Shown here in pieces: positions 1-63,312 of a stretch of 64,000 bases of DNA (positions are counted from its first letter, which is position 1; each line of letters starts with the position of its first letter). The notes below the pieces were generated by a model that saw only the letters and a program-made list of their open reading frames with translations, was not told the DNA's origin and did not search any database. This DNA is from a virus. The stretch is from the IMG/VR virus record IMGVR_UViG_3300037804_000252, positions 1 through 64,000 of that record, one strand, 5' to 3'. A program made the translations under genes and the position numbers.

Positions 1-3000
1 ACTTCCACTAGAACCACTTGAACCAGAAGACCCACTAGTACCAGTTGTACCACTTGAACCACTCGTTCCCGAAGTTCCACTTGTTCCAGAAGTTCCATCA
101 GAACCAGTTGTACCTGATGTTCCCGAGGTACCACTTGTTCCACTACTTCCACTAGAACCAGAAGAACCTCCACTACCAGTTGTACCTGCTGTACCAGATG
201 TCCCACTTGCAATAGTTATACTTTGTTGCTCTAATGCACCAGTTGTTGGGTCATAAGATACAATTGTTGATGAACTACCTACTGGTAAAGTTTCTACAAA
301 TGCACCACCACTGATAATTAAGTCACCTAATATATTCAAACTACCAGTTAATTCTGCCGAACCAGAGAATGGGAATCCATCACCACTACCACCTCCACCA
401 CCATTTAATGCGAATGAAGCAGTTAGAGCAAACGATGAACTTAATACACTCATTGATGCAGTTTGGTCATTTCTTACATAATCTTCAGCAGATACTGCGT
501 TTAGTGCGTATGAAGCAGATACTGCGTAAACTGAGTATGAAGAACTTTGAATACTATCCATTCCAAATGGACCATCTACATTAGATGAAGTTACATAAGA
601 TGCAGTTTCGGAAGACTCGCCTCCTCCACCACCTCCACCACCATTGAGTGCAAATGATGCAGTTACCGCATACGAAGCAGAAAGAACTGTCATCGATGCT
701 GTTTGTGAATTTCTTATAAAGTTTGATAAATCTTGAATTGCTGCGATTGAAGCAGAATCTAAACCTACAACGTTTTGTGCTAAGTCTGATACTTCAGCAC
801 TTATTGCTCTTGATGCAGAAGGAACTATTCCTATTACATTGTCACCACTGATTGCTCCACTAATTTTTGAACCACCACTACCAACAACTACTTGTCCACT
901 CGTTAAAGTACTAAACGTAATTTTTACTCTATTGTTATCTAATGATTCAATAGAAGCAGGTATTAGTTGTGCGTTAGAACCAGTTTCATAAACTTGTACA
1001 ATTGGATAATCTAAATCAAAGTTATGTATAACAGTAACTTGAGTTACATTGTCAAATGGTACAGTTGTAGTTGGTGTTGATTCTGGTACAGGAACAAATT
1101 TGTTTTTTGCACTATCAAATATTAAAATTTCTCTATCTTCGGCATCACCTTCTCCCTCATAAGGGCCTTTAAGTGAACCACTAAATAAACCACCTTCAAA
1201 TCTTGGAGCAAATACAGTATTTTCAACACTTAAATTACCACTAATAGATGCAGATGCGTTTACAACAAATCCAAAGTCAGGTGAAATTTCTGCAGTAAAT
1301 GCCCCACTCTGAAGTAGGTTGGTTTCAAATGCTAGATTTGCAATATTAATGTTTCTAAGTCCACTACCATCTCCATAAATTACACTACCACTATCAACAA
1401 TTAAGTCTCCATCTTGTACATTTAATCCTCCACTAACATTAAGTGATGCAGTAATGTCTACTTTATCAGCAGGTGTAAATATTTCTAAACCTTTGTCAGG
1501 TGATATAATTGCGAATGCAGAACCAGATGTGATTCTATCTAATTGTAAATCAGTTAAGGATTCTGCAGGAATGTTAAATAATTCAGAACCATCACCAGCA
1601 AATACTGATGCTGATAATCTGACATTAACATTCATTTCATTAGGGTCAATGATTGCTTCTGCTGAACCTGATTTAATTCTATCTAATTCTAAGTCAGTTA
1701 ACGATTCAGCAGGAATATTAAATAAACCACTACCATCACCCCTATAAAGAGATGCAGATACTGACCCACTAATATTAATAGAACCAGTAAATTCAGAACC
1801 ACTATCTTCAGATTCTACTCTAAATCCAAATACAGGTGATACCGAAGCAGTTACCGAACCACTTGATATTTTTGGTGCTGCTGCTGCTTGAACATTTTGT
1901 AGATTTGAACCATCACCAAAATATGTTGTAGCAGTCATAGAACCACTGACAAGAACCGAACCACTAAATTCAGAGGTTACTGGATTTACTCCTTCACCCT
2001 CTACCCTAAAGAATCCAGTAGGGTCAACTGATGCTGTTATTGAACCAGTAAAGATACGAGATGAATCAATTGCTAAGTTAGCAATATCAATATTTGTAAG
2101 TCCACTACCATCACCAGTATAGATACCCGTAATTTTTAGGTCTCCATCTACATCTATTGAACCAGTAAACTCAGAACCACTTACTTGAGATTCTACTCTA
2201 AATCCAAATTCTGGTGATACTGATGCAGTTACACCCCCACTTACAATCAATGGAGTATCTTGTGCTCTTTCTGCAATTACACCAGTTAGTTTAGAACCAT
2301 CTCCTACAAATTCAGTTGCAAGTATTGAACCAGTTACATTTATTGAACCAGTCGTATCAACTGAACCTGTTATTTGTTGTAGTGATTCTGTTGTAGAACC
2401 AAATGTATTACTATTTGGTGCAGATAAAGTTTGTAATGTACTTATACCTTGTACATCTAAATTATTTTGTATTTCTAGGTTTGTGTCAATATTAACTGAA
2501 CCAGTTATTTGTAGACTACCTATTATTCTAGAACCACTATCACCAGATTCAACTACAAATCCATCATCGGGTGTTACAGATGCAGTTACCGAACCAGATG
2601 CTATTCTAAATGCATCACCTGTAAATGCTGAACGAGGAATATCAAATAAATTTCTACCAGAACCACTAAAGTTACCACTAATTTCATTGGCAATTAATTT
2701 ATCTGCCTTTAATGTTTTTTCAACTGTTACATTATCACTAATATCAACTCTACCATCAAATACAATATTTGCATTAGTCGGTTCTTCACTTAATACATTA
2801 ATTTGACCACCCATTCCAGAGTGATTAATACAATAATAGTAAAGTGTTGTTGGTGTGTTAGAATCAACATCGATAATTACTCTTGAACCACTATCTCCAG
2901 CATTAATACTACCAGTATCCACACTACCAGTGTAAACATTACCACTATTGTGAGTACCATCCGATGTAATTGATAATCTTAAAGCATGTGTAGCATTATT

Positions 3001-6000
3001 ACTACCCGTTTGCCAAAATGTATAAGTTGAACCAACTAAGAATTGTAATGTAGGTTGTCTTTCTGAATTAATAACATATTTGTTACTACCATCAAAATCT
3101 TGAACATCTACATTTAGACTTTTAATATCTTCGAATGGTTCAAATGATGCAGATACTAATAAAGAACCAGTAGTTTTAACATTTCCACCAACATTTAGTC
3201 CACCACTAATAGATGCAGTAGCATTCACTTCAAATCTGAAGTCAGGTGTTAATGATGCCGTTACCGAACCTGTTGCGATTGATGCTTGTAATGGAAAATC
3301 CTCTGCATTGTCTGAAATAGGGATATCAAATAAATCTCTACCACTACCACTAAATGCTCCACTAACTTCATTTACTACAATTTTATCTCCACTAATTGTA
3401 TTTCCAAAAGAAATATTATCTTGAACATCTAAATCACCATTTAAGTCTAAATTACCTTGTATTAGTGTATTGTTATATAATTCTATTGAAGCACTTTGTA
3501 CATATTCATCTACAACATAAATTGTTCCTGCCATTTCAGCATGATTCTCACAATTATAGTAGTATGTACCTTGTGCAGATGCAGAGAAGAAAATAGAACC
3601 ACTCGTTCCACCATTATTTGTAAATGGAAGTGCGTTACCAGTTCCCGTTCCTGCTGAGGTCTTTAAGTAAAAAGGATGTCCCGATGCTGATATTTCAAAT
3701 TCGTATGCAAGATTTTTAACTAATACTAAATCTGGATTCAATCTACCATCGATTGAGTACGCAGTATTACCAACATTGTATACAAAGAAATGAGTATCTA
3801 AAGAACCCGTAGGAACTATTTGATTTGAGGCAGATACTATAAAACTACCACTTACCCTTAAATCATCTTCAAATCTACCAAATTCATTTACAATAAATCC
3901 TTCATTAGGAGAAACCGATGCTGTTACTGAACCAGATGCGATTCTTGATGCGTCTTCTGAAAGTGCAGATTGTGGAATATTAAATAATCCACTACCATCA
4001 CCTTGGAAAAGAGATGCAGAAATATAATTTTGAGTATCTATCGAACCACTAAATATAGAACGAACTGAACCTTCCGATGAAGCAACGAGAAACTCTCTAT
4101 ATTCAAATACAGAAGCACTTACCGAACCTGTTGCTATTCTTGGAGAATCATCAGATAGTGCTGCTTGTGGAATATTAAATAATCCTCGACCATCTCCACT
4201 AATTATACCATCAACATCTAGTGAATTTGTTACAAATACCGAACCTGTAAATTCTTGTCTATCTGCTAAAGTTTTTCCAAATGTGTTTGAACCTGAAGAG
4301 TAAATTATTGTAGTTTCTACATAGTTTGTATAAAGTTCATTTGATACAATTGCACCTGCTACTACTAAGTCACCATCAATTGATGCACTTGCGTTTACGG
4401 TAAATCCACTTGTTGGGTCAATTGAAGCAGAAAATGCTCCACTAATTATTCTATTTGAATCCAATGCATCTTCAGTTAGTGCATTTCTTGGAATATTGAA
4501 TAATTTTTCACCAGAACCACTAAATGCAGAACCAGATTGTACTCTAACTTCACCAAAGAAAGTAGAACCACTATCAACCGAAGTTACTACAAAACCATCA
4601 TCAGGTGATGTTGATGCAGTTACCGAACCACTAAATATTTTTGATGTATCTAAATCTGCTATGGCAGCAGCTGGTATGTTAAATAGTTTTTCACCAGAAC
4701 CACTAAATGCAGAACCAGATTGTACTCTAACTTCACCAAAGAAAGTAGAACCACTATCTATTGACTCTACAACAAAACCATCGTTTGGTGAAACTGATGC
4801 GGTTACTGAACCACTTGTTATTTCGTTTGATTCTAATGCGTCATCTGTTAATGCAGTTCTTGGTATATTGAATAATTGTTCACCACTACCACTAAAGAAC
4901 GAACCACTACTAATAGAAACTCCACCAAGTACATCAATAGAACCAGTAAATTGTGAACCACTATCTATTGACTCTACTTTGAAACCGTCTTCATTAGAAA
5001 CGGATGCAGTTACATTACCTTGTTGTATTCTCGTTGATGCTACCACTTCTTCTGCAAAAGCAGATAAAGGTATATCAAATAAATCTCTACCACTACCACT
5101 AAAGAATGATGCAGAAACTGAACCACCTGCTGTTACATCAGTACCTACTGTTGCATTTCGAGACACAAAAATAGAACCACTAAATTCAGACCTTGTTCCT
5201 AATATACCTGTTCCAAAATCTTCTACTCTAAATCCTCTATTAGGGTCTACTGATGCTGTTATAGAACCTGATGCTATAAATGATGAAATTAGTGCATCTT
5301 GTGTAAGTGCAGTTCTTGGTATATTGAATAATTTAGCACCACTACCACTAAAGTCAGAACCAGAAGTTAATCTAAGTTCTCCAGTAAATGTAGAACCACT
5401 CACTTCTGATGTTACAATGAATCCATCATTTGGGTCAACTGATGCAGTTACCGAACCAGTTGTTAATATTTTTGCTTCTGCCGCAATTGCAGCATTTATT
5501 GCTTGTTGTGTTTCATCTGAAAGTGCTGCTAGAGGAATATCGAATAACTTTTCACCACTACCACTAAATGAACTACCACTTGCAACTCTAAGTTCACCAA
5601 AGAATGTTGAACCAGTTAATGAAGTTACTACGAATCCCTCATTTGGAGAAACCGATGCAGTTACCGAACCACTTACTATAAATGAAGATAATAAAGCATC
5701 TTCAGTAAGTGCTGAACGAGGTATGTTAAATAAATCCCTACCACTACCACTAAATACCGAACCACTTTGTAGTTTAACATCTCCAATAAAAAGTGAACCA
5801 CTATCAACTGAAGTTACTACAAATCCAGTATCAGGTGAAACAGATGCGGTTACCGAACCAGATGTAATTTGATTTGTAATTAGAGCATCTTCAGTTAATG
5901 CTGAACGAGGAATATCAAAAAGTCCTTGACCACTACCACTAAATACCGATGCCGATACTCCACTTTCTACAAACAATGAAGAACTAAACTCTGCTCTATC

Positions 6001-6939
6001 AGTACCTTCTAATCTAAATCCAAACTCTGGACTAACTGATGCGGTTACTGAACCACTTGCTATGAAAGATGATAATAGTGCATCTTCTGTTAATGCACTT
6101 CTTGGAATATCAAATAAGTCTCTACCACTACCACTAAATACAGAACCACTATCTAATTTTACATCACCAAAGAAAAGTGAACCACTTTCAATAGAAGTAA
6201 CTCTAAATTGATTGTCTGCTGTCGATGCTGTAATTGCTCCACTTGCGATTAAAGAAGCATCTTCTGAAAGTGCTGATTGTGGAATATCAAATAAATCCCT
6301 ACCACTACCACTAAAGAATGATGCAGAAATTGCATTTACTTCTATATCATTTGTAACAAAGACTGAACCAGTTACATTTGCATCACCTCTAAGACCATAT
6401 GAACCAGAAATGGATACTGAACCTGTAAATTCTTGTAAATCAGTTACATCGTTTCCAAATCGATTTGAACCAGAAGAGAATACGATTGATGATGAAATAA
6501 TTTCAACAAGTATCTCTCTTGCTACAATTCTATTATCTACTAATAAATCACCAGTAATTCTAACATCACCATTAACATCCATATCTCCATCAAACGATGA
6601 TGATACGTTTACTAAAAACCCAGTATTTGGTGCGATTGATGCAGATGCAGAACCACTTCTTAATAATGAGGTATCGGGTAAATTATTTAATTCAGAACCA
6701 TCTCCTGCGAATGAACCACTAAAAGAACCCGTTAATTCTTCTAATTGGATTTTAGTTACGAAAAGTCTATTACCATCTGCGTCAGATGCTACAAGTGCAA
6801 TAGAACCAGATGACAGACTCCCACTAATAGGTACACCTAAATTAGGTTCTACCTCCGCAAGTTCTAAAAACTCGTATCTGTCAACCGAAACATCACTCGG
6901 TTTAACTACTCTAACTTTTCCACTTAATAATTGACTCAT
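1..6939 (-). CDS. Giant repeat tail-fibre/adhesin protein, 3' end outside window
   Basis: The minus strand is open from an ATG at 6939-6937 to position 1 with no stop seen, so at least 2313 codons are present and the C-terminus lies outside the window. It begins MSQLLSGKVRVVKPSD. I count about 21 copies of a short motif of the type GDGSGLFNIP or SGSGRDLFDIP, each followed by SALTED-like residues and a GSVTASVSP..GF segment, in units of about 60-65 residues. Short GDGSGL(T/F)NI repeats are common in phage fibres and surface adhesins. Two cupredoxin-like insertions lie near residues 1060-1145 and 1290-1380. The last 60 or so codons in the window are a collagen-like Gly-Ser/Thr-Ser/Thr triplet tract. 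Long plus-strand reading frames across 4496-6934 are antisense shadows. It is probably a trimeric fibre or whisker. Coding status is very confident; exact role is less so. Confidence 0.88.
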   Translation of the reverse strand, partial: MSQLLSGKVRVVKPSDVSVDRYEFLELAEVEPNLGVPISGSLSSGSIALVASDADGNRLFVTKIQLEELTGSFSGSFAGDGSELNNLPDTSLLRSGSASASIAPNTGFLVNVSSSFDGDMDVNGDVRITGDLLVDNRIVAREILVEIISSSIVFSSGSNRFGNDVTDLQEFTGSVSISGSYGLRGDANVTGSVFVTNDIEVNAISASFFSGSGRDLFDIPQSALSEDASLIASGAITASTADNQFRVTSIESGSLFFGDVKLDSGSVFSGSGRDLFDIPRSALTEDALLSSFIASGSVTASVSPEFGFRLEGTDRAEFSSSLFVESGVSASVFSGSGQGLFDIPRSALTEDALITNQITSGSVTASVSPDTGFVVTSVDSGSLFIGDVKLQSGSVFSGSGRDLFNIPRSALTEDALLSSFIVSGSVTASVSPNEGFVVTSLTGSTFFGELRVASGSSFSGSGEKLFDIPLAALSDETQQAINAAIAAEAKILTTGSVTASVDPNDGFIVTSEVSGSTFTGELRLTSGSDFSGSGAKLFNIPRTALTQDALISSFIASGSITASVDPNRGFRVEDFGTGILGTRSEFSGSIFVSRNATVGTDVTAGGSVSASFFSGSGRDLFDIPLSAFAEEVVASTRIQQGNVTASVSNEDGFKVESIDSGSQFTGSIDVLGGVSISSGSFFSGSGEQLFNIPRTALTDDALESNEITSGSVTASVSPNDGFVVESIDSGSTFFGEVRVQSGSAFSGSGEKLFNIPAAAIADLDTSKIFSGSVTASTSPDDGFVVTSVDSGSTFFGEVRVQSGSAFSGSGEKLFNIPRNALTEDALDSNRIISGAFSASIDPTSGFTVNASASIDGDLVVAGAIVSNELYTNYVETTIIYSSGSNTFGKTLADRQEFTGSVFVTNSLDVDGIISGDGRGLFNIPQAALSDDSPRIATGSVSASVFEYREFLVASSEGSVRSIFSGSIDTQNYISASLFQGDGSGLFNIPQSALSEDASRIASGSVTASVSPNEGFIVNEFGRFEDDLRVSGSFIVSASNQIVPTGSLDTHFFVYNVGNTAYSIDGRLNPDLVLVKNLAYEFEISASGHPFYLKTSAGTGTGNALPFTNNGGTSGSIFFSASAQGTYYYNCENHAEMAGTIYVVDEYVQSASIELYNNTLIQGNLDLNGDLDVQDNISFGNTISGDKIVVNEVSGAFSGSGRDLFDIPISDNAEDFPLQASIATGSVTASLTPDFRFEVNATASISGGLNVGGNVKTTGSLLVSASFEPFEDIKSLNVDVQDFDGSNKYVINSERQPTLQFLVGSTYTFWQTGSNNATHALRLSITSDGTHNSGNVYTGSVDTGSINAGDSGSRVIIDVDSNTPTTLYYYCINHSGMGGQINVLSEEPTNANIVFDGRVDISDNVTVEKTLKADKLIANEISGNFSGSGRNLFDIPRSAFTGDAFRIASGSVTASVTPDDGFVVESGDSGSRIIGSLQITGSVNIDTNLEIQNNLDVQGISTLQTLSAPNSNTFGSTTESLQQITGSVDTTGSINVTGSILATEFVGDGSKLTGVIAERAQDTPLIVSGGVTASVSPEFGFRVESQVSGSEFTGSIDVDGDLKITGIYTGDGSGLTNIDIANLAIDSSRIFTGSITASVDPTGFFRVEGEGVNPVTSEFSGSVLVSGSMTATTYFGDGSNLQNVQAAAAPKISSGSVTASVSPVFGFRVESEDSGSEFTGSINISGSVSASLYRGDGSGLFNIPAESLTDLELDRIKSGSAEAIIDPNEMNVNVRLSASVFAGDGSELFNIPAESLTDLQLDRITSGSAFAIISPDKGLEIFTPADKVDITASLNVSGGLNVQDGDLIVDSGSVIYGDGSGLRNINIANLAFETNLLQSGAFTAEISPDFGFVVNASASISGNLSVENTVFAPRFEGGLFSGSLKGPYEGEGDAEDREILIFDSAKNKFVPVPESTPTTTVPFDNVTQVTVIHNFDLDYPIVQVYETGSNAQLIPASIESLDNNRVKITFSTLTSGQVVVGSGGSKISGAISGDNVIGIVPSASRAISAEVSDLAQNVVGLDSASIAAIQDLSNFIRNSQTASMTVLSASYAVTASFALNGGGGGGGGESSETASYVTSSNVDGPFGMDSIQSSSYSVYAVSASYALNAVSAEDYVRNDQTASMSVLSSSFALTASFALNGGGGGSGDGFPFSGSAELTGSLNILGDLIISGGAFVETLPVGSSSTIVSYDPTTGALEQQSITIASGTSGTAGTTGSGGSSGSSGSSGTSGTSGTSGTTGSDGTSGTSGTSGTSGSSGTTGTSGSSGSSGSSGS
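2790..3070 (-). other. Cupredoxin-like domain copy 2 with type-1 copper ligand set
   Basis: Within the left-hand fibre gene this segment encodes a small beta-rich domain. It has a His in THALRLS (codon 2986-2988, residue 1318) and the cluster YYYCINHSGMGG, giving Cys1370 (2830-2832), His1373 (2821-2823) and Met1376 (2812-2814). His...Cys-x2-His-x2-Met is the type-1 copper ligand pattern, and C-x2-H-x2-M is the amicyanin spacing. Copper binding is inferred from the motif. Confidence 0.7.
3510..3800 (-). other. Cupredoxin-like domain copy 1 with type-1 copper ligand set
   Basis: This is a second domain of the same type in the same fibre gene. HPFYLKT supplies His1088 (codon 3676-3678). The cluster YYYNCENHAEMAG supplies Cys1130 (3550-3552), His1133 and Met1136. 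The His to Cys distance is 42 residues, close to that in small blue copper proteins. It differs from copy 2 by more than half of its residues while keeping all four putative ligands, which argues for selection on metal binding. Confidence 0.7.
4504..4758 (-). repeat. 72-bp perfect direct repeat inside fibre gene
   Basis: Positions 4504-4575 and 4687-4758 are identical over 72 bases, with an offset of 183 bases (61 codons, one protein repeat unit). Neighbouring units have diverged at the DNA level, so this pair reflects a recent unit duplication or a conversion event. Confidence 0.85.
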
Positions 6940-7843: not shown

Positions 7844-10800
7844 TTAGTCTTGTAGTGCAAGTGAGAATGGTGTTACTAACGAGAACAATGAACGAGAGAA
7901 TGTTCGACCTTGTAAAGTACCTGTTGCTTGATTAATTACAAGACCAGCACCAATTCTAAAGTCACCAAGTTCATTACCCGAAGTAAAGAATACTCTACCT
8001 CCACCGATTTCGGTTATTTCTTTGTCTGGGTCTGGTATACCTGCACCACCTTGGTTAGGAGGTAATGCTTTATAAGTTACACCAGCACCTGAGTATGAGA
8101 AATCATGTCCAGTAGTAATTATCAAGGAACCAAAGTTTTCTAATGGAGAGTTCCTAACAATTCTCTGGAATTGAGTTCTCAAAAATCTATTAGCATCCGC
8201 AGTTTCATATTTTTGCTCGTTTACTACTGCGGAAGCATCACCATACACACCATTGTAGTATGATTTTGCTGCTTCGATACTTCTTTCATTTCCACCATAG
8301 AATAAATCGGTTGCGATAGCATCTAAGATGAAACCAGTATCTCTATAACATTTTTCTTCATTATAAACAAAGTTAGGGAATGCTCCATTTGTATACGAAA
8401 TTGCCTTACCTTGTAATATTTTTTTACTTGACTTTAATAAGTCAACTGATACTCTTGTATTGAATGGTGGTCTTGTTAATTGATTTTTAAGAATCACATT
8501 TTCAGAAAGACCTTTTGCAAAGTCAATACCATCAATTGTTTGAGGTTTTTGTTCAGTTATTGCGACTGAAGGTATGTAATAGTAGAATCTACCTGCTTGT
8601 AAACTTCTCTCATTACCACCATAAACCATGTCAGTTCTAACTGCGTCAATTATATATCCAACATCTCTAAAACATTTTGATTGATTATATTCAAACTCAC
8701 TCCATGATGAAGATAAGAATGTAATAACTTCTGTTTGAATTAGATTTTTATTACCAATCAATAATTCAGCACCAACAAGTGTTGCATTTGAAGGTGTTGT
8801 AAACTCAACATTTTGAATTACCTTTTGTGATAATCCTTTTGCATATCTAACTCCATCAATTGTTGGGTCTAGTTGATTTTCTTCAGAAGGAACTCCACTA
8901 TTAGTTGCTCTTGATGGATATCTCCAATAGTAACTACCTGCGGTTACACTTCTTTCATTACCACCATAGAATAAATCAGTAGCAGTAGCATCAATTAAAT
9001 GACCAACATCTCTTTTACACTTGTCTTCATCGTAGTAAACACCACTCCAAGAAGATGATACAAAAGCAATAACTTCGTTTTGAATAAACTCTTTATTATC
9101 TCTTAATAAATTCCAAGATGCCGATACCTCGTTAGAAGCAGTTACAAATTCAATATTTTGAACTAACTTTTGTGATATACCACTTGCGTATTTAATACCA
9201 TCAGTTGTTTGGTTTACTTGAGTTGTAGTTGCCTCTGATGGGTATAAATAGTAGTATTCTCCTCCAGTCCTACTTCTTTCGTTACCACCATATAAGAAAT
9301 CAGTAGCAACAGCATCTAGAATGTATCCAGTATCTCTACTACAACTTGCTTCATTATAGTCAAAATTACTCCAAGATGAAGAAATATATGCTATAACCTC
9401 ATTTTGAATAAATTCTCTATTTTCTAATAATGTTTTATTACCTGCTATTCTTTCAGAAGAAGCAGTTACAAATATATTATTTTGAACTAAGTTTTCCATC
9501 AAGTCACCAGCATACTCAATACCTGTTGTTGTTGGGTCAACTTGTGCGTTTGTTGCAGATGATGGATACTTGTAGTAGAAGTTTCCTGCATTAATACTTC
9601 TCTCATTTCCACCATAAAGAACATCAGTTGAAACTGCATCAATTATATGAGTTATATCTCTCTTACATTTTTCTTCGTTATAATCAAACGAACTCCAAGA
9701 AGATGATAAGTAAGAAATAGATTCACTTTGAATAAATTCTCTATTTTCTCTTATTAAGTTATAAGAAGATGATACTTCTAAAGATGCCGTAACGAACTCC
9801 GTGTTCTGAATTAAGTTTTGTGTAATTCTACTTGCGTAGAATATTCCATCTAATGTTTGATTTATTTGTGAACCTGTACCATTTGCTTCTGATGGGAATT
9901 CGTAATAGAATTTACCATTTACAATTGATGCAGAATAACTATTATAAACTAAGTCTTCTGCTGCTCCACTAATAATAAATCCAACATCTCGTTTACATTT
10001 CTCCTCATTGTACGATGATGTACTCCAAGAAGATGATAAGTAAGCAATTGTTTCATCTTTGATAAAGTCAATATTTTCCTTGATAATCTCGTAAGCAGCG
10101 AGAGTAGACGGGTCAGTAGAACGTACTCCATATAAACTTGCAGTTTCATATGAACCCGTTCCATTTGCGATTATCGTAGTGACTAAATCAATTGAAGATG
10201 AAACAAATGCTATATTTTCTAAACTACCACTTAACGAACCAGTAAACTGATTGTGTGTAAAGAACTTAATATTAGAATTTGTATTAAGTGTTCTTTGTGG
10301 TATTTCTAGTGTTTCTTTATTTGCTATTTTTTCTATTAAATCTTTTATGTAAACAATACCATCAACTGTTGAATCTAGTTGATAACTAATTGCTTTAGAT
10401 GGGAATCTATAATAGAATTCACCAGCAGTAATACTTCTTTGATTACCACCCCATCTTAAATCAGTTGCGATTGCGTCTACAATGAATCCAGTATCTCTAC
10501 TACAACTTTGTTCGTTGTAGACTAAGTTAGGATATTTAGCATTTATAAATGAAACTGTTTCATTTTGAATAAATTCTCTATTTTCTCTAATTGAATCATA
10601 AGTGTATTCAACTTCATTACTTGATGTTACAAAAGTAGAACCACTTACAATTTCACCAACTAAACCTTTAATATAATTTATTGCAGTTACAGTTGGGTCT
10701 TTTTGTTGGTTTTCACTTGGTATACCACCAACGATTGCTGCTGATGGGTATTTGTAGTAATATTCTGCCGCAATAATACTTCTCTGATTTCCACCATAAA

Positions 10801-13800
10801 GAAGGTCAGTTGCAATAGCATCAACAATATGTCCAGTGTCTCTTCTACATTTTGATTCTGAGTAATAGAAATCACTCCAAGATGAGGATACAAATGCGAT
10901 TGTTTCCTCTTTAATGAAATCTCTATTGTTACTCAATAATTCAAATGACGCAGAAACATTTTGTGAAGCAGTTACATAAGTTCTACCTCTAACAATATTT
11001 TGTGCCATATTACCTGCGTAGATAATACCATCAAGTGTTTGTTGTAATTGAGAACCAGTTGCTTGAGATGGATATTCATAGTAATATACTCCATTAACAA
11101 GTGACGCAGAATTTGCGTTCCAAATTAAATCTTCGGCTGCTCCACTGATAATAAAACCAAGGTCTCTTCTACATTTTGTTTCATTATAATCAAATTCACC
11201 CCAAGATGAAGAAAGGAATGCTATTGTTTCATCTTGAATAAATGAAATATTATTTTTTAATAAATTATATGCATTGACACTTTTTGGAGCATCAATTGTT
11301 TCAGTATATTCAACAAGATTTGGTAATGAACTTGTTCCATTATTTAGTATATCAACAATAAGTCCAAATGATGAAGAAATTATTTTTTCTTGAACTCTAT
11401 CACCACTACTTCCAATTGTTTGACTAGTATTAGTGTATTTAATTAAATTATTAATATCACTATTTGTTTTAACTAAACTTGGTAAAGAACCTGTACCATT
11501 TTGGACTACATTTTCTATAATACTTCCTCTTTCTTTAACTAAATCAATTTCAGTTAATGAACCACCATATATTCCAATAAATTGTTCTACATTTCCAACC
11601 TTTATATTGTTAGATGTATTTGAAATTTGAATAGGTAGTGAACCAGTACCATTTTCTATGATATCATTTATAATTTTAACAGAAGAACTTACAATTTCTA
11701 ACTCATCAGTAACATTATATGTACCACTTGCTGTTACATAAGAACTAGTAGTTAAATTTTGTGGATTATCGAGTTCTGATGTTTGGAAATGTTTTGCTAT
11801 TGTAAATGGAATTTTGTCAGTTCCGAATCTAATAACATCATTTATTAAATCAACACTTGATGATATAATTCCAACCTCAGTAGAAGTACCACTTGTTGAT
11901 AAAGTAAATTGGTCTATATTGTTTACTTTAGTTTTTGAGTCTATATTTTTTACTTCAAATGGTAAAGTACTAACTGAATTATTTACTACTCTCTTAAACG
12001 TATGATTAGATTGAGGTAGGTGTTTTAATGCACCATTCGAAGCTGATACGAAAGTGTGAACTGATTGAGGTTCATGTTTTACTGCATTGTTAGATGCAGA
12101 TACAAATGTATGAATTGAACCACTTGCACTTCCACCATCACCTACATTAATTGTAAACGTTCCATCTTGTCTTTCTAATCCGTTAGTAGTTGCTGATACA
12201 AATGTATGTGAACCTACATATGGTGAAGAACCTATATTAATATCGAATGTATTTGTAGTTACATTAGAAATTTCTAACCATCTTCCACTTGGATAATCGT
12301 AATTAGGTCTTGGGTAAGATTTGGTAGTTGTATTACCATCTAATACACAAGTATAAGTTAGAGAGTTATCATCTAATTTGATGTAATCTCCATTTGAGAA
12401 CCCATGAGATGCGATTGTTATAGTAACATCACCAGTTGCCGAATCATATGGTGCATTAGTTACACTATGAGAAGTTGTACCAACTGAAGTAATTACAATT
12501 GATTTTCCTGCATATGGGTCTGAACCTGGTCTTGGGTAAGAATGAGTTGTAGCATCATTATCTTGGTCACAAGTAAATGCGAATGATTCATCTTCTAATA
12601 CCACACTTCTACCAACACCCAATCCATGTTGTCCAACAGTTACAATCATATCACCAGTTGATGCGTTATAATTAGCATCGGTTGGTGTAAAGTATTTGTT
12701 CGGACCAGATGCACCAACATTAAATGTTAATGTAGTATCGGTTACCGATGTGATTGGAATTGAACGTACTGCGAATGGGTCGATTCCTTCTCTTGGATAA
12801 GATTTAGTTGACTGGTCATTGTCCATATCACAAGTAAATGCGAATGATTCTGGTGACATAACAACACCCTCTCCAACACTTAAACTATGAGTTCCAACTG
12901 TAACTACAAACTCACCATTTGATGGGTCATAAGTTGCGTTAGTTGGATTAAATTCTATATTAGGACCTGATTTACCAACGTTTACAGTTATAGTATTTGT
13001 TGTTGTTGATTTTATTGGTAATCTATTGTTATATGCAGGTTGACCAACCGATGGTAATATATGTTCAGTCCTATTTCCATCCATATCACAAGTGAATACG
13101 AATGAATCTGGTCTTAGGTATAAACCATTTAATTTAGTTAATGTGTGATTTGGAATAGTCATTACAAAATCACCATTAGCTGGATTATAAGTTGCGTCTT
13201 CTGGAGTGAATGATTTTACACCATCAGTTATAATTCCAATAACTGACTCAAATGAAGAACTAATTTCTGATACTGAACTTCCACTTATTGCTATTGAATT
13301 AGTGTATTGTGTAGTATCAGTAAATCTAATATTATTTTCACTATTTTTTATTATAGAAGGAATAGTCAATAGTTCACTTTGTACTAGTTTTTTACTAACA
13401 GAATCTGCATATCTTATTGCTTGTATAGTTTCTTCTAATTGAACAGTAGTTGCTTCAGATGGGTATAAATAATAGTAAATACCAGCAACAACACTTCTTT
13501 GATTACCACCATATAAAAGGTCAGTTATGACTGCATCTATAATATACCCAGTGTCTCTTCTACATTTAACTCTATTATAAGTAAAATATGGATATGTTTG
13601 GTCTATAAAGTCTATAACATTATCTTGAATAATATCTTTGTTATTTAATATTAAATCATATGATTGTTTTTTGTCTAAAGAAGTAGTAGTAAATATAGTA
13701 TTCTGAATAAGTTTTTCTGCAACCCCAGCTGCGTGTCTGACTCCATCAACAGTTTGTTGTAATTGAGAACCAGTTGCTTCACTTGGGAATAAGTAATAGA

Positions 13801-16800
13801 ACTCACCAGCAGTTACACTTCTTTCATTACCACCATAAAGTGTATCGGTTGCAACTGCATCAATAATATATCCAGTATCTCTTCTACATTTAGACTCTAT
13901 ATACTCAAATCCACTCCAAGAAGATGAAATATAAGAAATAACTTCATCTTGGATAAATGATTTATTTTCAAATAATAAGTCATATGTTGCTTGTCTTTCT
14001 AAAGAAGCAGTTACTAGAGTTGTGTTAGTAATTAATTTATTTACAAGTCTTGACGCAAACGATATACCGTCTGATGTTTGTGATAGTTGAGAACCAGTAG
14101 CGTCAGATGGATATAAATAATAGAATTCACCAGCATTTACTGCTCTTTCATTTCCACCATATACAAAATCAGTTACAACTGCGTCTAAAATATATCCAAC
14201 ATCTCTTTTACATTTAGATTCATTGTAATCAAATGTACTCCAAGAAGATGATAGATAAGAAATTGTCTCATCTTGTATTAGTTGTTTATTTTCAGTTATT
14301 AAACTTGCTACACTTAATTTTTGTTCTGATGCTGTTACAAATAATTTATTTTGTAAAATGTTATCAGACATTGATTTTGCCCACTTAACACCATCAACTG
14401 TTTGAGATAGTTGTGAACCAGTAGCATCTGAAGGATATAGGTAGTAGAACTCACCTGCTACTCTACTTCTTTCGTTTCCTCCATAAAGTAAGTCAGTAGT
14501 AACTGCATCTAAAATATATCCAACATCTCTTGCACATTTAACATCATCATATTCAAAGTCTGCCCAAGATGAAGAAATGTATTCTACAACTTCAGTTTGA
14601 ATTAAGTTTCTATTTTGGAAAATTAAATCATATGCATTTGTTCTACTAAATGGTGCAGATGCAAATTGTGTATTTACTACAATATTTTCAGACAATCTTC
14701 TTGCGTAATTAATTGCGTCAACTGTTTGAGAAAGTTGAGAACCAGTAGCATCAGATGGGTATCTGAAATAGTAGTCTGCTGCCTCTATGGTTCTTTCATT
14801 ACCACCATAAAGAACATCAGTAGCAACAGCATCTATGATGTATCCCACATCTCTTTTACAAGTGGATTCTACATAATCAAATTCAGACCAACTTGCAGAG
14901 ATATACTCAATAGTTTCATCTTGAATAAATTGTTTGTTATCTCTTAATAATTGATGAGATGTAGATACCTCATTTGATGCAGTTACAAAAGTAGTTTGTT
15001 GTATTACTTTATCTGCTAATCTTCTTGCATAATCAATACCATCGAGTGTTTGTTGTAATTGAGAACCAGTTGCAGATGATGGATATAGATAGTAGAACTC
15101 ACCAGCATTTACACTTCGTTCATTACCACCATAAACTACATCAGTTTTTACAGCATCTATAATGTGACCAACATCTCTCTTACAAGTAATTTCAACATAA
15201 TCAAATGTAGACCACGAAGAACTTAAATAAGAAATTGTTTCATTCTGAATAAACTCTGTGTTTTCAGTTAATAAAGTTTGTGTATCTAATCTTTCTTGTG
15301 ATGCAGTTACAAATTCAATGTTCTGAATAAGTTTTTGTGCCAATCTACTTGCATAATTGATACCATCTAAAGTTTGATTTATTTGTGATGTTTCTGCAAG
15401 TGATGGGTTTTCAAAATAGAATCTACCATTAACAACCGATGCAGAGTTTGCATTGTATATTAAATCCTCTGCCGCACCACTTACAATAAATCCAACATCT
15501 CTTCTACACTTTTCTTCATCATAAGATGCGGTAGACCAAGATGAACTTAGATATGTAATTGTTTCTTCTTGAATAAAATCAATATTTTCTTTTATAATTT
15601 CATATGATGCAATTGCATTTTCAGTTGTCAATCTTGTTGTATAATCAACAAGAGTTGGTGCAGAATTTAATCCATTAGTAATAATACTTGTTACTATTGC
15701 AAATGAAGAAGATACAAAATCAACATCTTCAAGTGAACCACTATAAGATGATGAAATATATTGACCTACATTTCCAACTTTAATATTTTCGTTTACATTT
15801 TCAACAATTGTAGGAATACTACCAGTTCCGTTTTCAACTATATCTAATACAATTGCAAATGAAGAACTTACTTTTTCAATTTCAGTATTACTAACACTCA
15901 TTGAAACATTTTGATAAATGTTTGTATCAGTTACTTTAATACTTGCTGATGTGTTAAGAATTTCGGTTGGTAATACACTTGTACCATTTTTTAGAACATC
16001 AATGATTGTTGCATAAGATGAACTAACTAATTCAACTTCAGTATTAGTTGCTGATATAGATGAGGTAACTTGATTTGTAGAAGTTACTTTAATTAAATCC
16101 GAAATATTGTCATCTAATATAGGTAAAATATTTACTGAATTTTCATCTGTTCTAACAAAAGTATGAACTGATTGTGGTAAATGTTTTACTGCTCCATTTG
16201 ATGCTGATACGAATGTGTGAACCGTTTGTGGTTCGTGTTTTATAGCATTGTTTGATGCTGATACAAATGTGTGTATTGAACCACTTGCACTTCCACCATC
16301 TCCTACATTGATTGTAAATGTACCATCTTGTCTCTTTAATCCATCAGAAGTTGCTGATATAAATGTATGCGTGTTTGTGTAAGATGAAGAACCTATATTA
16401 ATATCAAATGTATCAGTTGTTACGTTTGATAACTCTAACCATCTTCCAGAAGGATAATCATAACCAGGTCTTGGATATGATTTTTCAACAGTATCACCAT
16501 CCAATACACAAGTATAAGTTAGAGAGTTATCATCTAATTTTATGTAATCCCCATTAGAGAACCCATGATTAGTTATTGTAATAGTTACATCACCAGTTGA
16601 TGCATTATAAGGTGCGTTAGTTACTGTATGTGATGTTGTTCCAACTGATGTGATTGGTATCGATTGTTCGGCGTATGGGTCAGAACCACTTCTTGGGTAA
16701 GAATGTGTAGTTGAATCTCCATCTTGGTCACAAGTGAAAGCAAAAGATTCATTTTCTAATACTACACTTCTATTTACACCTAATCCATGTTGACCAACTG

Positions 16801-19800
16801 TAACTACCATATCTCCACTCAATGCGTTGTAATTTACATCAGAAGGAGTAAAGTATTTATTTGGTCCAGAAGCACCAACATTAACAGTCATTGTTGTATC
16901 AGTAACATCCGTTATAATCATTGAACGACCAGCGTATGGGTCAATTCCAAATCTAGGATAAGATTTAGTAGATTGGTCATTGTCCATTTCACAAGTAAAT
17001 GCGAATGAACCAGTATCTAATACGATACCTTCCCCAACACTTAATGTGTGAGTTCCAGTTGTGATTACGAAATTACCAGTTGCAGGGTCATAAGTTGCGT
17101 TGGATGGAGTCCATTCAATATTCGGACCTGATTTACCAACGTTTACAGTTATAGTATTTGTTGTTGTTGATAATATCTCTAATTTATTATTGTAAGCAGG
17201 TTGACCAACTGATGGTAATTTATGTTCGGTTTTGTTACCATCCATATCACAAGTGAATACAAACGATTCTGAATTAAGATGTATATCAGTTCCAACAGAT
17301 AAACCATGGTTTGGAATTGTCATTACAAAGTTTCCATTTGATGGGTCATAAGTTGCCGTTGTTGGTGTAAATGAACCTACTCCATTTTCCAATATATTAA
17401 TTATTGTATCAAAAGAAGATGTTACAATATTTCTAATTCCATCAGTTGCATCAGTTGAAGATGTGTATTGTGAAATATTACTCTTTTTAATAGAACCAGT
17501 AATATTACCAACAACCGTTGGTAAGTTATCTAAACCATTTTCTAAAATATCAATTACGGTTGCGAATGATGAACTTACATTATGTGTATCATTTACAGAC
17601 GCCGATAACGATGAACTAAACTGACTATTGTTTGTTACCTTAATATTGTCTATCGTGTTGTATACAACCTCTATTTCACCCTTAGAAGGTACATCTATAT
17701 ATCTTTGAGTGTCTGATAGTGGTAAAGTGTCTACGATGTTAATAATACCACTAGATGAAACATTGTTTCCATTCACATAGAATAATCTATCAGGTGCATC
17801 AAATGGTACAATAAATGTTAATGTTCCAAAAGTAGTTCCATTGTTTGTTATACCACTTGTATATTGAAATTCAGTACCAGATTTTCTTTGTGTTTTAATA
17901 TAGAAAGGTTGTCTTTCATCTGGATTTATACTTCCACCATCTACTATATTTAGAGAGTTAACAGAGAAAGTATATAGTTCTCCTCTTTTTAGAGTAAGTG
18001 TTGGGTCTTTAATTCCATCATCATAAGAACCACTATCTTCTGGTAAGTTTTCTCCATCAATGTCATCAAAACTTGATAATTGATTTTTATTAAAATAAAA
18101 TGCATTGTAGTTACTATCTAAGGTAACCACTTCAAAATAAGTTGAAGCAGTTGATGAACCACTTAGTAAAGAACTTCCAGTTATTCCAAATTCTATTATA
18201 TCAGAAATACTAGCAAATGAAGATGAGACTTTATTAATTTCTGTTGAAGATGCCGTTACTGATGCTGTGTATTGTGAGTTATTATTAAATTTAATATTTC
18301 CATCAGTATTTTTTACAATAGTAATATCATTAGGTATATCTACACCTATTACAGTTTTTACCAAATTATCTCCATAAGAATCTTTTGGTATACCAACTGT
18401 TGATATAGGACTACCCTTTGAATCTGTTCCTACTGTTTCTTCAGTAACTATGGATGAACCACTTTCAATTATTTTTATTACAGTTTCATAGTTACTTGAA
18501 ATACTTTCAGTATATACGTTATCAAAACTTGTACTACTAGTTATTTGATTTCTACCACTTGTGTTTATGGGATTGGTTGTAGTCCAATCAATATCACTTG
18601 AATTTGCTGCTATAGCACCCAACACATTAGTGTCACCATATCTTATAATATCTTCAATAATACCAAATGACTGAGATACTATTTGTATTTCTGTTTCTCC
18701 ACCACTAACTGAACTCGTTGTTGGTGTATATGATGTTACTCTTATATTACCATCGGTGTTTAGAACAATCTGTGGTGTACTAATATTATTCGATAATACT
18801 ATTTGTCTTAAAAACCCTTGAGAGTATCTAATACCCTCTAATGTTTCTTCTAACTGAGTTGTATTAGCAATTGATGGATATAAGTAATAATATAATCCTG
18901 CTAACTCACTTCTTTCATTACCACCATATAATAAATCAGTTATTACATTATCAATAATATATCCAGTATCTCTTCTACACTTTGATTCGTTGTAAGAAAA
19001 TGTTGGATATTTTGTGTTTATATATGTAATCGTTTCGTTTTGTATTAAGGAACGATTTTTTCTTGCTAAATCAACTGCCGATTGTATTGATACCGATGAT
19101 GTTACGAATGTGTCATCGTTAACCAATTTTTGTGACAATCTTTTAGCATACTTAATACCATCTATTGTTTGTTGTTTTTGACCAGTTGTTCCATTATCAA
19201 CTGTTGCTAATGATGGATATTTGTAATAGAAGTTTCCTGCCTCTAATGTTCTTTCATTACCATCATACAATAAGTCAGTTCCAACTGCGTCAATTATGTA
19301 TCCTAAATCTCTTCTACACTTTGCTTCATTGTAATCAAAGGTTGACCAAGAAGATGATAGATACGAAATTGTTTCTTCTCTAATAAAATCTTTATTATTA
19401 AATAAAACATCATACCCATTATCAATGTCAGAATTTGTGTCTCTAAATGTTCTATTCTTTAATACATTTTCAGTAAGACCTCTAACGTATTTAATTGCTG
19501 TTAAAGTTGGGTCTTTTTGAGTTGTTGTAGCATCTGATGGATACTCATAGTAAAAAATACCATTTCTTACAGACTCTTCGTTACCACCATATAATAAATC
19601 ATGTGCTGCACCACTTACAATAAATCCAACATCTCTTTTACAAGTTTCTTGATTGTATTCAAACTCACTCCAAGAAGAAGATAGGTATTCAATAGTTTCA
19701 TCTTGTATAAAAGGTATATTGTTAATCAATAACTCATATGCGTTCTGATATTCAATGGTTGGGTTTGCTACCGAACTACTTTGTATGATGTCAGGTACGA

Positions 19801-47909: not shown

Positions 47910-50900
47910 TTAATGTCCTATTGCTATCCAAAACCCAGATGTTCCATCTAATATGATATCCATTCCATTCCTATCCACATTAGATACATGATTAAATCCA
48001 CTTCCACCTGCTGAGTTTCTTAGAGTAGAACAAACAGCTGCACTTATTGAGGTTGGGAATTCAGTTGGAAATCCAACATTCTTTATACCATAAGAAGTAC
48101 CTTGATTAACACTTCCCCATTGTATTATTACACCACCAGGAAGTTTTACATAACTATCTTTATTATTAACGACTGTTGTTTGACCCGTGGTTCCTGTTAT
48201 AGAATTGACAAGTGAAACTGCCAGTCCACTAATATCTATACCATTTAGATATTTCCATCTATTTCCATCTTTACCTAATGCAAATGGTCTATAAACTCCA
48301 CCAGTTGCACTTATACTATTAGTACTAGCTACATCAGGGTTCATTGGTAATATGTTACCCATTGCAAATATTGCTTGTGCATTAGTATCATCGTAGGCTG
48401 AAGCTGCTGGGTCAACAGCAAATGCTCTTGATGTAATTTCTAAATGACCATCACCTACTTCTAATAATTTTGTGGCAGTATCAATCAATTCTCTTCTAAA
48501 AATTCTTACAAATCTATCGTTATTAGATACAACTTGTATTCCTGCTGGTCTTATTTCTACAAAGTTATTTTCTGCTTGAACTGTAATATCCTGGTCCCAA
48601 CCTCCATAACTATAACCACCATTACTAAAAAACTCTTCAGTATAATTTGATGTAGAGGTATTTGTTTTGAATGTTGTAGTATGAACGTTCCAAGGTCCAG
48701 CCGTAAACCCACCACCTGATGTAACAGAAAAACTCTGTCCAGAAGCAGATGCAACTTCCCATCTATATCTAAGTCTAGCAGGTCCACTTTCTTGAATAGA
48801 GATACTTTTTTCAACCGTTTCTGAAGATGAAGATTTATTACCTCCACCTGAAGATGCTCCGTCAATTATTTGATATACCCATTCTAAAGTATCCCCACCG
48901 ATGATGTTGTGAGAAATAATACCATTTGAAAGATAGTTTACATAGTGAGGTACACTAAAGGTTATTACCTCTTCTTCTTTTTCAATTATTTCAACTTTGC
49001 TTATTTTAACTGCTTTTATAGAGTCACCATCTTTAATACGAACATGGTAACCATCTTCTTCTAGTAAATCAGTATGATTTTTATAAACATCATATAAATT
49101 AGTTACTTTTACCTTTCCACTGTTTAATTGTGTACCAAATAACCAAAAACAGTGATTTTTGGAAACTTCAATCTCTTTTCCATCAGTAGTTGTTACTTTA
49201 TAGACTTTAGATACATCTCTTTTATGAATTTTAGATAATTTAGCAGATACCCATTTTTTATTTATATCATCCCATGCTAAAATCGTATCATTGATGGTAA
49301 TATATTTTGCTAACTTCGTAGTACCATCCGATAAAGTTATCTTAGTATCACCCACTACCGAAAGCTGACCACCACCACCAAATGTTTCCTCTGCCTGATA
49401 ATTGGAATATGAATTTGTTGGACCGTAAGTGTAAAGAGTTTTTAGTAATGTCTCTCCAATTACCACATCATCATTATTAATAACTTCTAGATAAACCGAA
49501 CCTCTTCGTTGTTGAGGAGATGGGTATGCTTGTATCCCCCCATGTATCTCACCTGAAAAGACCGGGTCATTGGAAGGTTGAGCAATTGTTGGATTTTGCG
49601 GTGATGTCATTCCAGTTTGTTTTAACTGAAGATATGGTATGGTAATATCCTTAAATGTTTTTACACCCGCTGAGATTGTTATAGGAGTGTTTGATGGTAT
49701 TGAAGTTCCTGTTGTTTTCGCAAAAGTTTTACCATTACTAGTAGAGGTTGCGGATATATTACTTCGAAGACCTCCAACAGAGGTTGCTGCGGAACCAGAC
49801 CATGTAAAACTTGTGTTTAGTGCTGCTGTTGATGAGAAATCCGAAACCGAATCTATTCGTATTTGTTCTCTACTTGATACCGGAATCAACTCTGATGGGT
49901 TCGAACCTGCTTCATATAATTGAACAGGTGCCCCATAACCAGTTGCATTTTCATTATAATAATAGAAATTGGTTGACGGTCTAGATGCTCCTAATACTGG
50001 TGAATTACCAAAAAGGTCAAAACTTTCAGATGGAAATATCGTAAGATATGCACCCGCATTACCTGGTAATGCACTTGAGGTTTGGATTAAGAATGGTTGG
50101 TTTTCAATGTTACTTGTATCTAAAGTTGTTGGTCTATTATACCTACCACCATATGTACCAATACCATCTTCTCTAACTGAGAAACTAAATAACTGATTTA
50201 ACATTGATGGGTGAGATAAATCAAAGTAATAACTACCACCATTATCTGTTGCAGGGGCCTGTTGCTCCAGTCGGGTTTGGGTTGGAGTAAATGGTAAAAA
50301 CTCTGACATGATTAAGTTAAGAGAAGCTTTGGATTCAGTGACATCAGAACTAAGACCTATGGCGAACGCATTATTCTCAACAAATACAGACATACTTCTA
50401 GGTGCACTTGTATCCACTTCTTCATATGACTGACTAAATATTTTTATACTAGGTGGTATCCCTATGTCAGCATCACCTGGATTTAATATAATTTCATTAC
50501 CATCATCTCTAAGTGTATTTGTTGTCTCATCAATAATCCATTCACCAATTTTACCAGAACTTGCTTGAACCGTACCTGCTATATTTGCGTCTGATGCCGA
50601 AACAATTCCAAGTATATCAACAGTAAATCTATATTCATTTGTATTTGGTCCAGTTTCTCCTATGAATAGTGATGGTCCTATAATTGCAGAACCAGTACCA
50701 GTAAATGATGCATCTGATAATGTAATTGCTCCATCTTTATATCTTAAAAATCTAGAACCAGTAGACATTGACAAAACAGGTAAACTTCCCGTGTATCCTA
50801 AGTATATTCCATCTTCTCCAAAATCTTGAACTACCTGCCCAATAGATATAAATGGATTTTCGTTATTGTTACTTGCGTCAGCATTTAATGCAATTGTTGG

Positions 50901-62828: not shown

Positions 62829-62860
62829 CAAATATACGAATAATATTTTAATTATCCAAA
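62829..62860 (-). promoter_or_regulatory. Bacteroidetes-type promoter of 67-aa gene
   Basis: Coding strand TTTG (62860-62857), 20 bases, TATATTTG (62836-62829). It overlaps the last codons of the GIY-YIG gene. The ATG chosen at 62795 is 33 bases downstream of the -7 element. This site decides against the TTG start at 62831. Confidence 0.8.
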
Positions 62861-63312
62861 TCTTTTTTATAAAATTTTCCTAATATATTACCATTTAGAC
62901 AATTATCATCTGAAAGTACATCATATTTGAATTGATAATGTACTTCATAATAAGATAATGATTTTTTTGAATAGCAGAATTGTAATACACTTCGTTTGAA
63001 CTCTTCTTCTTTACCTTCTGAGATTTGTTCTTTAATCCAATCGTTTGATGAGTAGTATTTCTGCCAGTCAGAAGATTTTCTAACTTTTTTCTTTTTGGGT
63101 AGTGAACCTCGTACACCTTTTAACTTTCGTTCTTCTTTGATACGTTGTAATTCTCTAACTCCGATTTTTACATTACGAACACTTTGTAATGATTTTTTAC
63201 CAATGTAGTATTTACCAGAAGGAATATGTTCTATTTTGTAAACAAATCCTACGGCATTTTCAGGTATAACATCTTCGGTAACATCGTTACCATTCCATAA
63301 CCAATTGACCAT
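62848..63312 (-). CDS. SegE-like GIY-YIG domain protein, 154 aa
   Basis: GFVYKIEHIPSGKYYIGKKS (residues 22-41) is a GIY-YIG signature (G-F-V-Y ... Y-Y-I-G). KKKKVRKSSDWQKYYSSNDW follows, where SDWxxYYSS(N/S) resembles the SegE-like family of phage nucleases. The C-terminal part has RSVLQFCYSKKSLSYYEVHY, then QFKYDVLSDDNCLNGNILGK, also typical of that group. Such proteins act either as free-standing homing nucleases or in DNA processing. It starts nine bases before the small gene upstream ends. Catalytic Arg and Glu were not located with certainty. Confidence 0.75.
   Translation of the reverse strand: MVNWLWNGNDVTEDVIPENAVGFVYKIEHIPSGKYYIGKKSLQSVRNVKIGVRELQRIKEERKLKGVRGSLPKKKKVRKSSDWQKYYSSNDWIKEQISEGKEEEFKRSVLQFCYSKKSLSYYEVHYQFKYDVLSDDNCLNGNILGKFYKKDLDN

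What the first reader, a model, noticed from the sequence alone, without database searches (positions are those of the whole stretch)
2790..3800. Two type-1 copper (cupredoxin) ligand sets inside a phage fibre
Two domains about 230 residues apart each keep His, Cys, His and Met in the order and C-x2-H-x2-M spacing of amicyanin, while the rest of the sequence has diverged. Blue copper sites are electron carriers. A phage fibre has no obvious need for redox, so the domains may bind Cu for stability, sense copper or redox state, or bind a host copper protein site.
Basis: partly seen in the sequence, partly recalled or inferred. Interest (0 to 1): 0.78.

Follow-up and report, generated by a model that had tools for sequence, protein, structure and literature searches.

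The report
Blue-copper-protein domains in phage tails
A giant tail-fibre protein of a virus of aquatic bacteria contains two domains folded like blue copper proteins with all four copper-binding residues in place, and the same domain, with those residues kept, sits in tail and baseplate proteins of many ocean phages, so many phage tails probably carry copper for a reason that is still untested.

Summary
In the 2313-residue minus-strand ORF (window 1-6939, cut by the contig end), D1 (3505-3816) and D2 (2782-3135) each carry His plus C-x2-H-x2-M. The protein has only two cysteines, both at ligand positions. AlphaFold2 gives confident folds (pLDDT 94.0 and 94.4). Their nearest solved structures are type-1 copper proteins, rusticyanin first. 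A profile of D1 relatives finds mostly blue copper proteins in the PDB. Several hundred related viral loci exist. Most keep the full ligand set at roughly 30-50% identity, and lost ligands tend to go together while the fold stays. A third copy in the neighbouring 4585-residue protein has lost all four. The domain also ends gp9, the baseplate/tail-fibre connector of cultured marine T4-like cyanophages, and occurs in bacterial proteins of marine Flavobacteriaceae. The nearest cultured relatives by core genes lack it, so it behaves as a transferable module. I conclude that these are genuine cupredoxin domains, probably copper-binding, used as non-enzymatic display or contact modules on the virion. 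Fold and ligand set are computed; copper binding, metal identity and function are inferred. I found no paper in the searchable open-access library describing this; subscription literature could not be checked.

The parts
1..6939 (-). Fibre ORF, 2313 residues, open at the contig end; close relatives have a 3539-residue version
3505..3816 (-). D1, cupredoxin domain (residues 1042-1145) with ligands H1088, C1130, H1133, M1136
   Evidence: Coordinates; model pLDDT 94.0; PDB fold matches; profile matches
2782..3135 (-). D2, cupredoxin domain (residues 1269-1386) with ligands H1318, C1370, H1373, M1376
   Evidence: Coordinates; model pLDDT 94.4; PDB fold matches
3676..3678 (-). D1 first ligand His1088 codon
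3532..3552 (-). D1 loop C1130-x2-H1133-x2-M1136
2986..2988 (-). D2 first ligand His1318 codon
2812..2832 (-). D2 loop C1370-x2-H1373-x2-M1376
17732..18010 (-). D3, diverged copy inside the 4585-aa ORF (7844-21601); all four ligands replaced (Q, N, N, S)
   Evidence: tblastn E 3.3e-4, profile E 4.6e-12, sequence and orthologues

Best explanation
D1 and D2 are true cupredoxin (type-1 copper) domains that serve as non-enzymatic display or contact modules on the phage tail. SHOWN by computation: the fold, the full His-Cys-His-Met set at the canonical places, conservation of that set in most of a large set of viral relatives, and a tendency of its members to be lost together while the fold stays. 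INFERRED: each domain binds one copper ion. It is probably made metal-free in the host cytosol, where free copper is scarce, and loaded at lysis or outside the cell. The metal ties the first-His loop to the Cys-His-Met loop and fixes the shape of one end of the beta-sandwich, giving a firm exposed contact face on a fibre or baseplate protein that meets the host envelope or a neighbouring virion protein. The module moves between aquatic phages and bacterial secreted proteins, and in some virion proteins (D3) it has been kept as a metal-free beta-sandwich.
For: Fold: models at pLDDT 94 with nearest PDB matches among type-1 copper proteins. Sequence: the profile of relatives finds copper nitrite reductase, pseudoazurin, plastocyanin, amicyanin, auracyanin, rusticyanin and azurin; 16 of 41 relatives match Pfam Copper-bind, best 1.5e-7. 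Selection on the site: 100 of 121 representatives keep all four, 9 none, against 68.5 and 0.04 expected from shuffles; the first His is lost with Cys, His and Met but not with equally conserved Tyr, Gly, Phe. A sample drawn by a motif outside the ligands keeps H..C-x2-H-x2-M in 51 of 62, with 4 more at the plastocyanin spacing C-x2-H-x4-M. Met-to-Gln variants occur, as in stellacyanin-type sites. Purifying selection: dN/dS 0.025 (D1) and 0.10 (D2) against close relatives. Virion context: C-terminal domain of gp9 in P-SSM7 and S-RIM8 with ligands kept. Modularity: absent from the nearest cultured relatives by terminase and major head protein, present in distant aquatic phages and in bacteria.
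Against: No metal has been measured. Side-chain geometry could not be computed. The domains score below the curated cut-offs of Pfam and NCBIfam copper-protein models. On the tree, supported independent losses are too few for significance. About a tenth or more of copies lack the set. Assembly in the cytosol makes metal loading uncertain. Virion location of this particular ORF is inferred from repeats and neighbours.
Confidence: 0.57

Rival explanations
1. Plain structural beta-sandwich: the domain is an Ig-like spacer or decoration module, and the site is mostly unfilled in real virions.
For: D3 keeps the fold under purifying selection without any ligand; phages assemble in a cytosol poor in free copper (general knowledge); clades exist with ligands replaced by aromatic residues.
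Against: The ligand set is kept in most copies at low overall identity and is lost as a set; loop variants match natural copper proteins.
Confidence: 0.17
2. Copper bridge or bait: copper held by the domain is recognised by, or shared with, a host envelope copper protein or uptake system, helping attachment, as has been proposed for iron in tail fibres (Trojan Horse hypothesis).
For: Position in fibres and in the baseplate connector; related domains in proteins of marine bacteria with lipoprotein-like signal sequences; precedent proposed for iron (PMC11705849).
Against: No host receptor known; in many proteins the domain is internal, not at a tip; the His-x-His iron motif is absent here.
Confidence: 0.14
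3. Redox or copper sensor: a change of copper oxidation state on reaching the cell surface alters the fibre and triggers the next step of infection.
For: A complete type-1 ligand set is suited to fast redox change (established for cupredoxins).
Against: No redox partner or switch seen; type-1 sites change little in shape on redox change; ligand loss is tolerated in D3 and elsewhere.
Confidence: 0.08
4. Chance resemblance: the His and C-x2-H-x2-M pattern arose by accident in a non-cupredoxin domain.
For: Single-domain scores against curated families are below cut-off.
Against: Fold, profile and conservation results; none of 20,000 shuffles has even one such loop.
Confidence: 0.01

Closest known systems
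Rusticyanin (e.g. PDB 1e30, 2cak, 1a3z)
   Same: Best fold match of both domains; same four ligand types in the same order
   Different: Rusticyanin is a free periplasmic electron carrier of about 150 residues with a longer ligand loop (own knowledge); here the domain is about 105-118 residues inside a giant fibre
Amicyanin
   Same: Same short ligand loop spacing C-x2-H-x2-M; found in the PDB profile search
   Different: NCBIfam amicyanin score 12.9 against a cut-off of 110 bits; no methylamine dehydrogenase genes seen in the part of the genome scanned
Pfam PF00127 Copper-bind (plastocyanin/azurin family)
   Same: 16 of 41 relatives match at E <= 0.01, best 1.5e-7
   Different: D1 itself scores 13.2 bits against a cut-off of 21.2; D2 does not match
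PHROG 677, baseplate wedge tail fibre protein connector (gp9 of marine T4-like phages)
   Same: Its last hundred residues are this domain
   Different: gp9 is about 410 residues with a T4 gp9/10 N-terminus; the window protein is a long repeat fibre. PHROG does not name the domain
His-x-His iron sites of T4 long tail fibre gp37 and marine phage fibres
   Same: Metal sites proposed or seen in a phage tail fibre (PMC11705849)
   Different: Iron in His-only sites; the 2313 residues held here contain no HxH (His positions)

Membership tests
Cupredoxin superfamily (fold level) | Greek-key beta-sandwich of about 100 residues, seven or eight strands | tested here: met
   Models with eight strands, pLDDT 94; best PDB matches are cupredoxins
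Cupredoxin superfamily (fold level) | His, Cys, His, Met ligands at the canonical places in the topology | tested here: met
   Positions relative to predicted strands; His, Cys and His line up with those of pseudoazurin, and the loop with the engineered amicyanin-length loop of nitrite reductase
Cupredoxin superfamily (fold level) | The four side chains meet at one point | not testable with these tools
Type-1 (blue) copper proteins | Binds copper with a charge-transfer band near 450-600 nm | not testable with these tools
   Needs experiment
Pfam PF00127 Copper-bind | Score over the gathering cut-off | tested here: not met
   D1 13.2 bits against 21.2; D2 no match. Not filed in this family
Amicyanin (TIGR02657) | Score over the equivalog cut-off | tested here: not met
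   12.9 bits against 110.2. Loop spacing alone is shared
Multicopper oxidases | HxH motifs for the trinuclear copper centre | tested here: not met
   No HxH in the 2313 residues held (His positions)
Iron-binding HxH tail fibres (T4 gp37 type) | Repeated HxH motifs | tested here: not met
   No HxH in the 2313 residues held; the rest of the fibre is beyond the contig
Phage tail fibre or other tail protein | Part of the virion tail | tested here: inconclusive
   Repeat-built protein in an array of giant same-strand ORFs with portal, head protein and terminase in the window; domain-level matches to PHROG tail families; no virion proteomics

The most novel reading that the evidence does not exclude
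A large share of marine tailed phages carry copper-loaded cupredoxin domains as a working part of the tail machine, used to find the host or to sense contact through copper or redox chemistry, making phage particles a copper-binding pool in seawater comparable to the proposed iron pool.
Probability: 0.13. Interest if true: 0.87.

Novelty: new variant of a known kind. Interest (0 to 1): 0.64.

Why it matters
Blue copper domains are known as electron carriers and as parts of oxidases. A conserved type-1 site in tail and baseplate proteins of very abundant ocean phages is unexpected, and no description was found in the literature that could be searched. If copper is really there, it adds a second metal to the debate about metals in phage tails, gives a testable handle on how marine phages attach, and offers a name for part of several hundred unannotated virion proteins. 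It is directly testable in cultured cyanophages, because gp9 of P-SSM7 and S-RIM8 ends in the same domain.

Tried and rejected
Single-sequence PDB search with D1 gave mostly designed Pizza propellers through low-complexity matches, not informative. NCBIfam and Pfam single-domain scans gave only sub-threshold copper-protein hits. I first took L094 for a ligand-bearing orthologue of the 4585-aa protein; flanking comparison showed a different, collagen-like protein, so D3's loss is not claimed as a loss within one orthologous position. Simple Fisher and shuffle tests for joint ligand loss ignore relatedness; the tree-based pairing agrees in direction but lacks power. Counting ligand retention from loci fetched with ligand-containing patterns is biased, so a motif outside the ligands was used for an independent count. 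The genome scan with A4 failed for lack of a conserved stretch; A1 worked. The HxH iron-site idea was considered and rejected for the part held. Literature searches on cupredoxin, blue copper, copper-binding and plastocyanin-like with phage or cyanophage terms found nothing relevant.

Full report
WHAT IS THERE. The minus strand of window 1-6939 encodes a 2313-residue protein that runs off the contig end; G000 is an 88.7-kb viral record and the window starts at its first base. The protein is built of fibre-like repeats (an L-F-[DN]-I-P type motif recurs about every 60 residues). D1 (residues 1042-1145, window 3505-3816) and D2 (1269-1386, window 2782-3135) interrupt the repeats. Ligand candidates are H1088, C1130, H1133, M1136 and H1318, C1370, H1373, M1376.

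FOLD. AlphaFold2 models from alignments of natural viral relatives have mean pLDDT 94.4 for D2 (23 sequences) and 94.0 for D1 (40 sequences), each with eight strands. In D1 the first His (model residue 47) lies between strands 38-43 and 49-52, Cys 89 ends strand 83-89, and His 92 and Met 95 lie in the loop before strand 96-102. D2 has the same arrangement. Foldseek against the PDB: D1 best hits are rusticyanin (E 3e-6, TM-score by query up to 0.71), then three-domain nitrite reductase, multicopper oxidases, CuA domains, plastocyanin and auracyanin; D2 best hits are rusticyanin (3e-4), the cupredoxin AcoP and a nitrite reductase with an engineered amicyanin-length loop. By sequence alone, a profile of D1 relatives finds 93 PDB sequences below E = 1, and the 60 shown are copper nitrite reductases, pseudoazurin, plastocyanins, amicyanins, auracyanins, rusticyanins, azurin, other cupredoxins and a cytochrome oxidase subunit II. 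D2 is more remote: by sequence only the ligand loop is seen.

FAMILY. In cultured phages, tblastn hits 150 (D1) and 84 (D2) records, almost all Synechococcus and Prochlorococcus phages with some Pelagibacter, Methylophilales, marine single-cell and lake phages; no enterobacterial phage appears in the listed counts. The domain matches parts of PHROG families annotated as tail fibre, baseplate wedge and virion structural protein, none of them named cupredoxin. In gp9 of P-SSM7 and S-RIM8 it forms the C-terminal hundred residues with all ligands kept; P-SSM7 gp9 has a T4 gp9/10 N-terminus over Pfam's cut-off and matches PHROG 677 over its whole length. Cellular relatives occur in marine Flavobacteriaceae and other bacteria, many in proteins with lipoprotein-like signal sequences and one such domain, and in OCS116, PS1 and Rhodobiaceae proteins of about 427 residues with two; that scan used an HPF-type pattern, so its ligand retention is biased. 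On a rough tree, cell and virus rows interleave with at least 12 changes.

ARE THE LIGANDS UNDER SELECTION TOGETHER? Among 121 domains under 80% identity, Cys is kept in 108 of 119, the second His in 104 of 116, Met in 103 of 115 and the first His in 105 of 121, on a level with structural Tyr, Gly and Phe positions. All four are kept in 100 and none in 9; shuffling columns gives 68.5 and 0.04 on average. The first His goes with Cys (Fisher p 3e-10), His (2e-13) and Met (6e-9) but not with the equally conserved Tyr85, Gly24 or Phe29 (p = 1). These p-values ignore relatedness. On a tree made without the ligand columns, the first His changes about 10 times; only four pairs rest on supported branches, where the loop follows in about three and never goes the other way, too few for significance. 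A sample drawn by a motif outside the ligands gave 62 domains: 51 with H..C-x2-H-x2-M and 4 with C-x2-H-x4-M, the plastocyanin spacing. Over 239 representatives, 195 have the amicyanin-type loop, 2 have Gln for Met, 3 have other Met spacings, and 39 are incomplete, some of them cut by contig ends. The tolerated variants are those known from natural copper proteins (own knowledge), which is hard to explain without a metal.

THE NATURAL CONTROL. In the same virus, the neighbouring 4585-residue protein carries D3 (window 17732-18010), found by tblastn and by profile. All four ligands are gone (Q, N, N, S), as in its orthologues in other viral contigs, yet dN/dS against a close relative is 0.046. 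So the fold is useful without metal in that protein, while D1 and D2 (dN/dS 0.025 and 0.10 against close relatives) and a further copy near the C-terminus of the 3539-residue fibre of close relatives keep the site.

MODULARITY. By terminase and major head protein the nearest cultured phages are Microcystis phage Mel-JY01, Flavobacterium phages of the immuto group and a metagenomic phage. Mel-JY01, an immuto phage, the metagenomic phage and the more distant Rhodothermus phage RM378 show no copy of the domain. The module is therefore not tied to the core of this virus lineage; it is shared among otherwise distant aquatic phages.

HOW IT MOST LIKELY WORKS. Best supported: a cupredoxin module displayed on tail and baseplate proteins, binding one copper per domain, with the metal acting to fix the loops at one end of the sandwich and so a contact surface. 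Metal loading is likely to happen at or after lysis because the cytosol offers little free copper (inference). The contact could be with the host envelope or with another virion protein; the gp9 case suggests that the latter is possible. Rivals are an unfilled structural sandwich, a copper bait or bridge to the host analogous to the iron Trojan Horse idea (PMC11705849), and a redox trigger. None can be excluded without metal analysis.

COMPARISON AND NOVELTY. It works like, and at fold level belongs to, the cupredoxin superfamily. It is not filed under PF00127, amicyanin or multicopper oxidases because their tested criteria are not met. No paper in the searchable open-access library was found to describe such domains in phage tails; subscription papers and automatic superfamily annotations elsewhere could not be checked. 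I rate it a new variant of a known kind: a known fold and site in a new place, as a widespread virion part.

Noticed in passing
window 7844-21601 (minus): The 4585-aa protein holds 19 copies of a C-x-R-D-x-[GT]-x-[IL] motif, mostly 108 residues apart, followed by a Y-G-G-N-E-R-S-like motif: an unnamed tandem repeat of about 108 residues.
   Followed up: partly
window about 48906-49262 (minus), in ORF 47910-57398: A Hint/intein-like splicing domain (Pfam Intein_splicing, below cut-off, E 1.8e-6), ending in SHN, lies inside a 3162-aa tail-fibre-like protein with a gp53-like C-terminus.
   Followed up: partly
window 2791-3075 (minus); L223: D2 and a cellular relative match, below cut-off, Pfam PF25489 (At5g54830-like domain of plant proteins), hinting that this eukaryotic domain is related.
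   Followed up: no
L126, L133, L166, L139, L161: A clade of the domain has its ligands replaced mainly by aromatic residues (patterns such as Y-C-Y-Y), as if the metal site had become a packed hydrophobic core.
   Followed up: no
L305, L308, L318, L325: Domains that keep the HPF motif but have the Cys-His-Met loop region replaced by a different stretch with a WCVVMP motif.
   Followed up: no
L220, L224, L226, L232-L235: Proteins of about 427 aa in OCS116, PS1 and Rhodobiaceae-type bacteria carry two such domains in tandem with ligands kept.
   Followed up: no
BFVD hits, e.g. A0A481Z6J5, A0A7D3QVK4: Predicted beta-sandwich proteins of giant viruses (Pithovirus, Marseillevirus) and a protein of Fadolivirus named blue type 1 copper protein resemble D1 in fold.
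   Followed up: no
window 62848-63312 (minus): A SegE-like GIY-YIG homing endonuclease (Pfam PF19835, E 2.8e-25).
   Followed up: no
window 4496-5872 (plus): A 458-aa open frame lies antisense to the fibre repeats; most likely a by-product of the repeat's codon pattern, not a gene.
   Followed up: no
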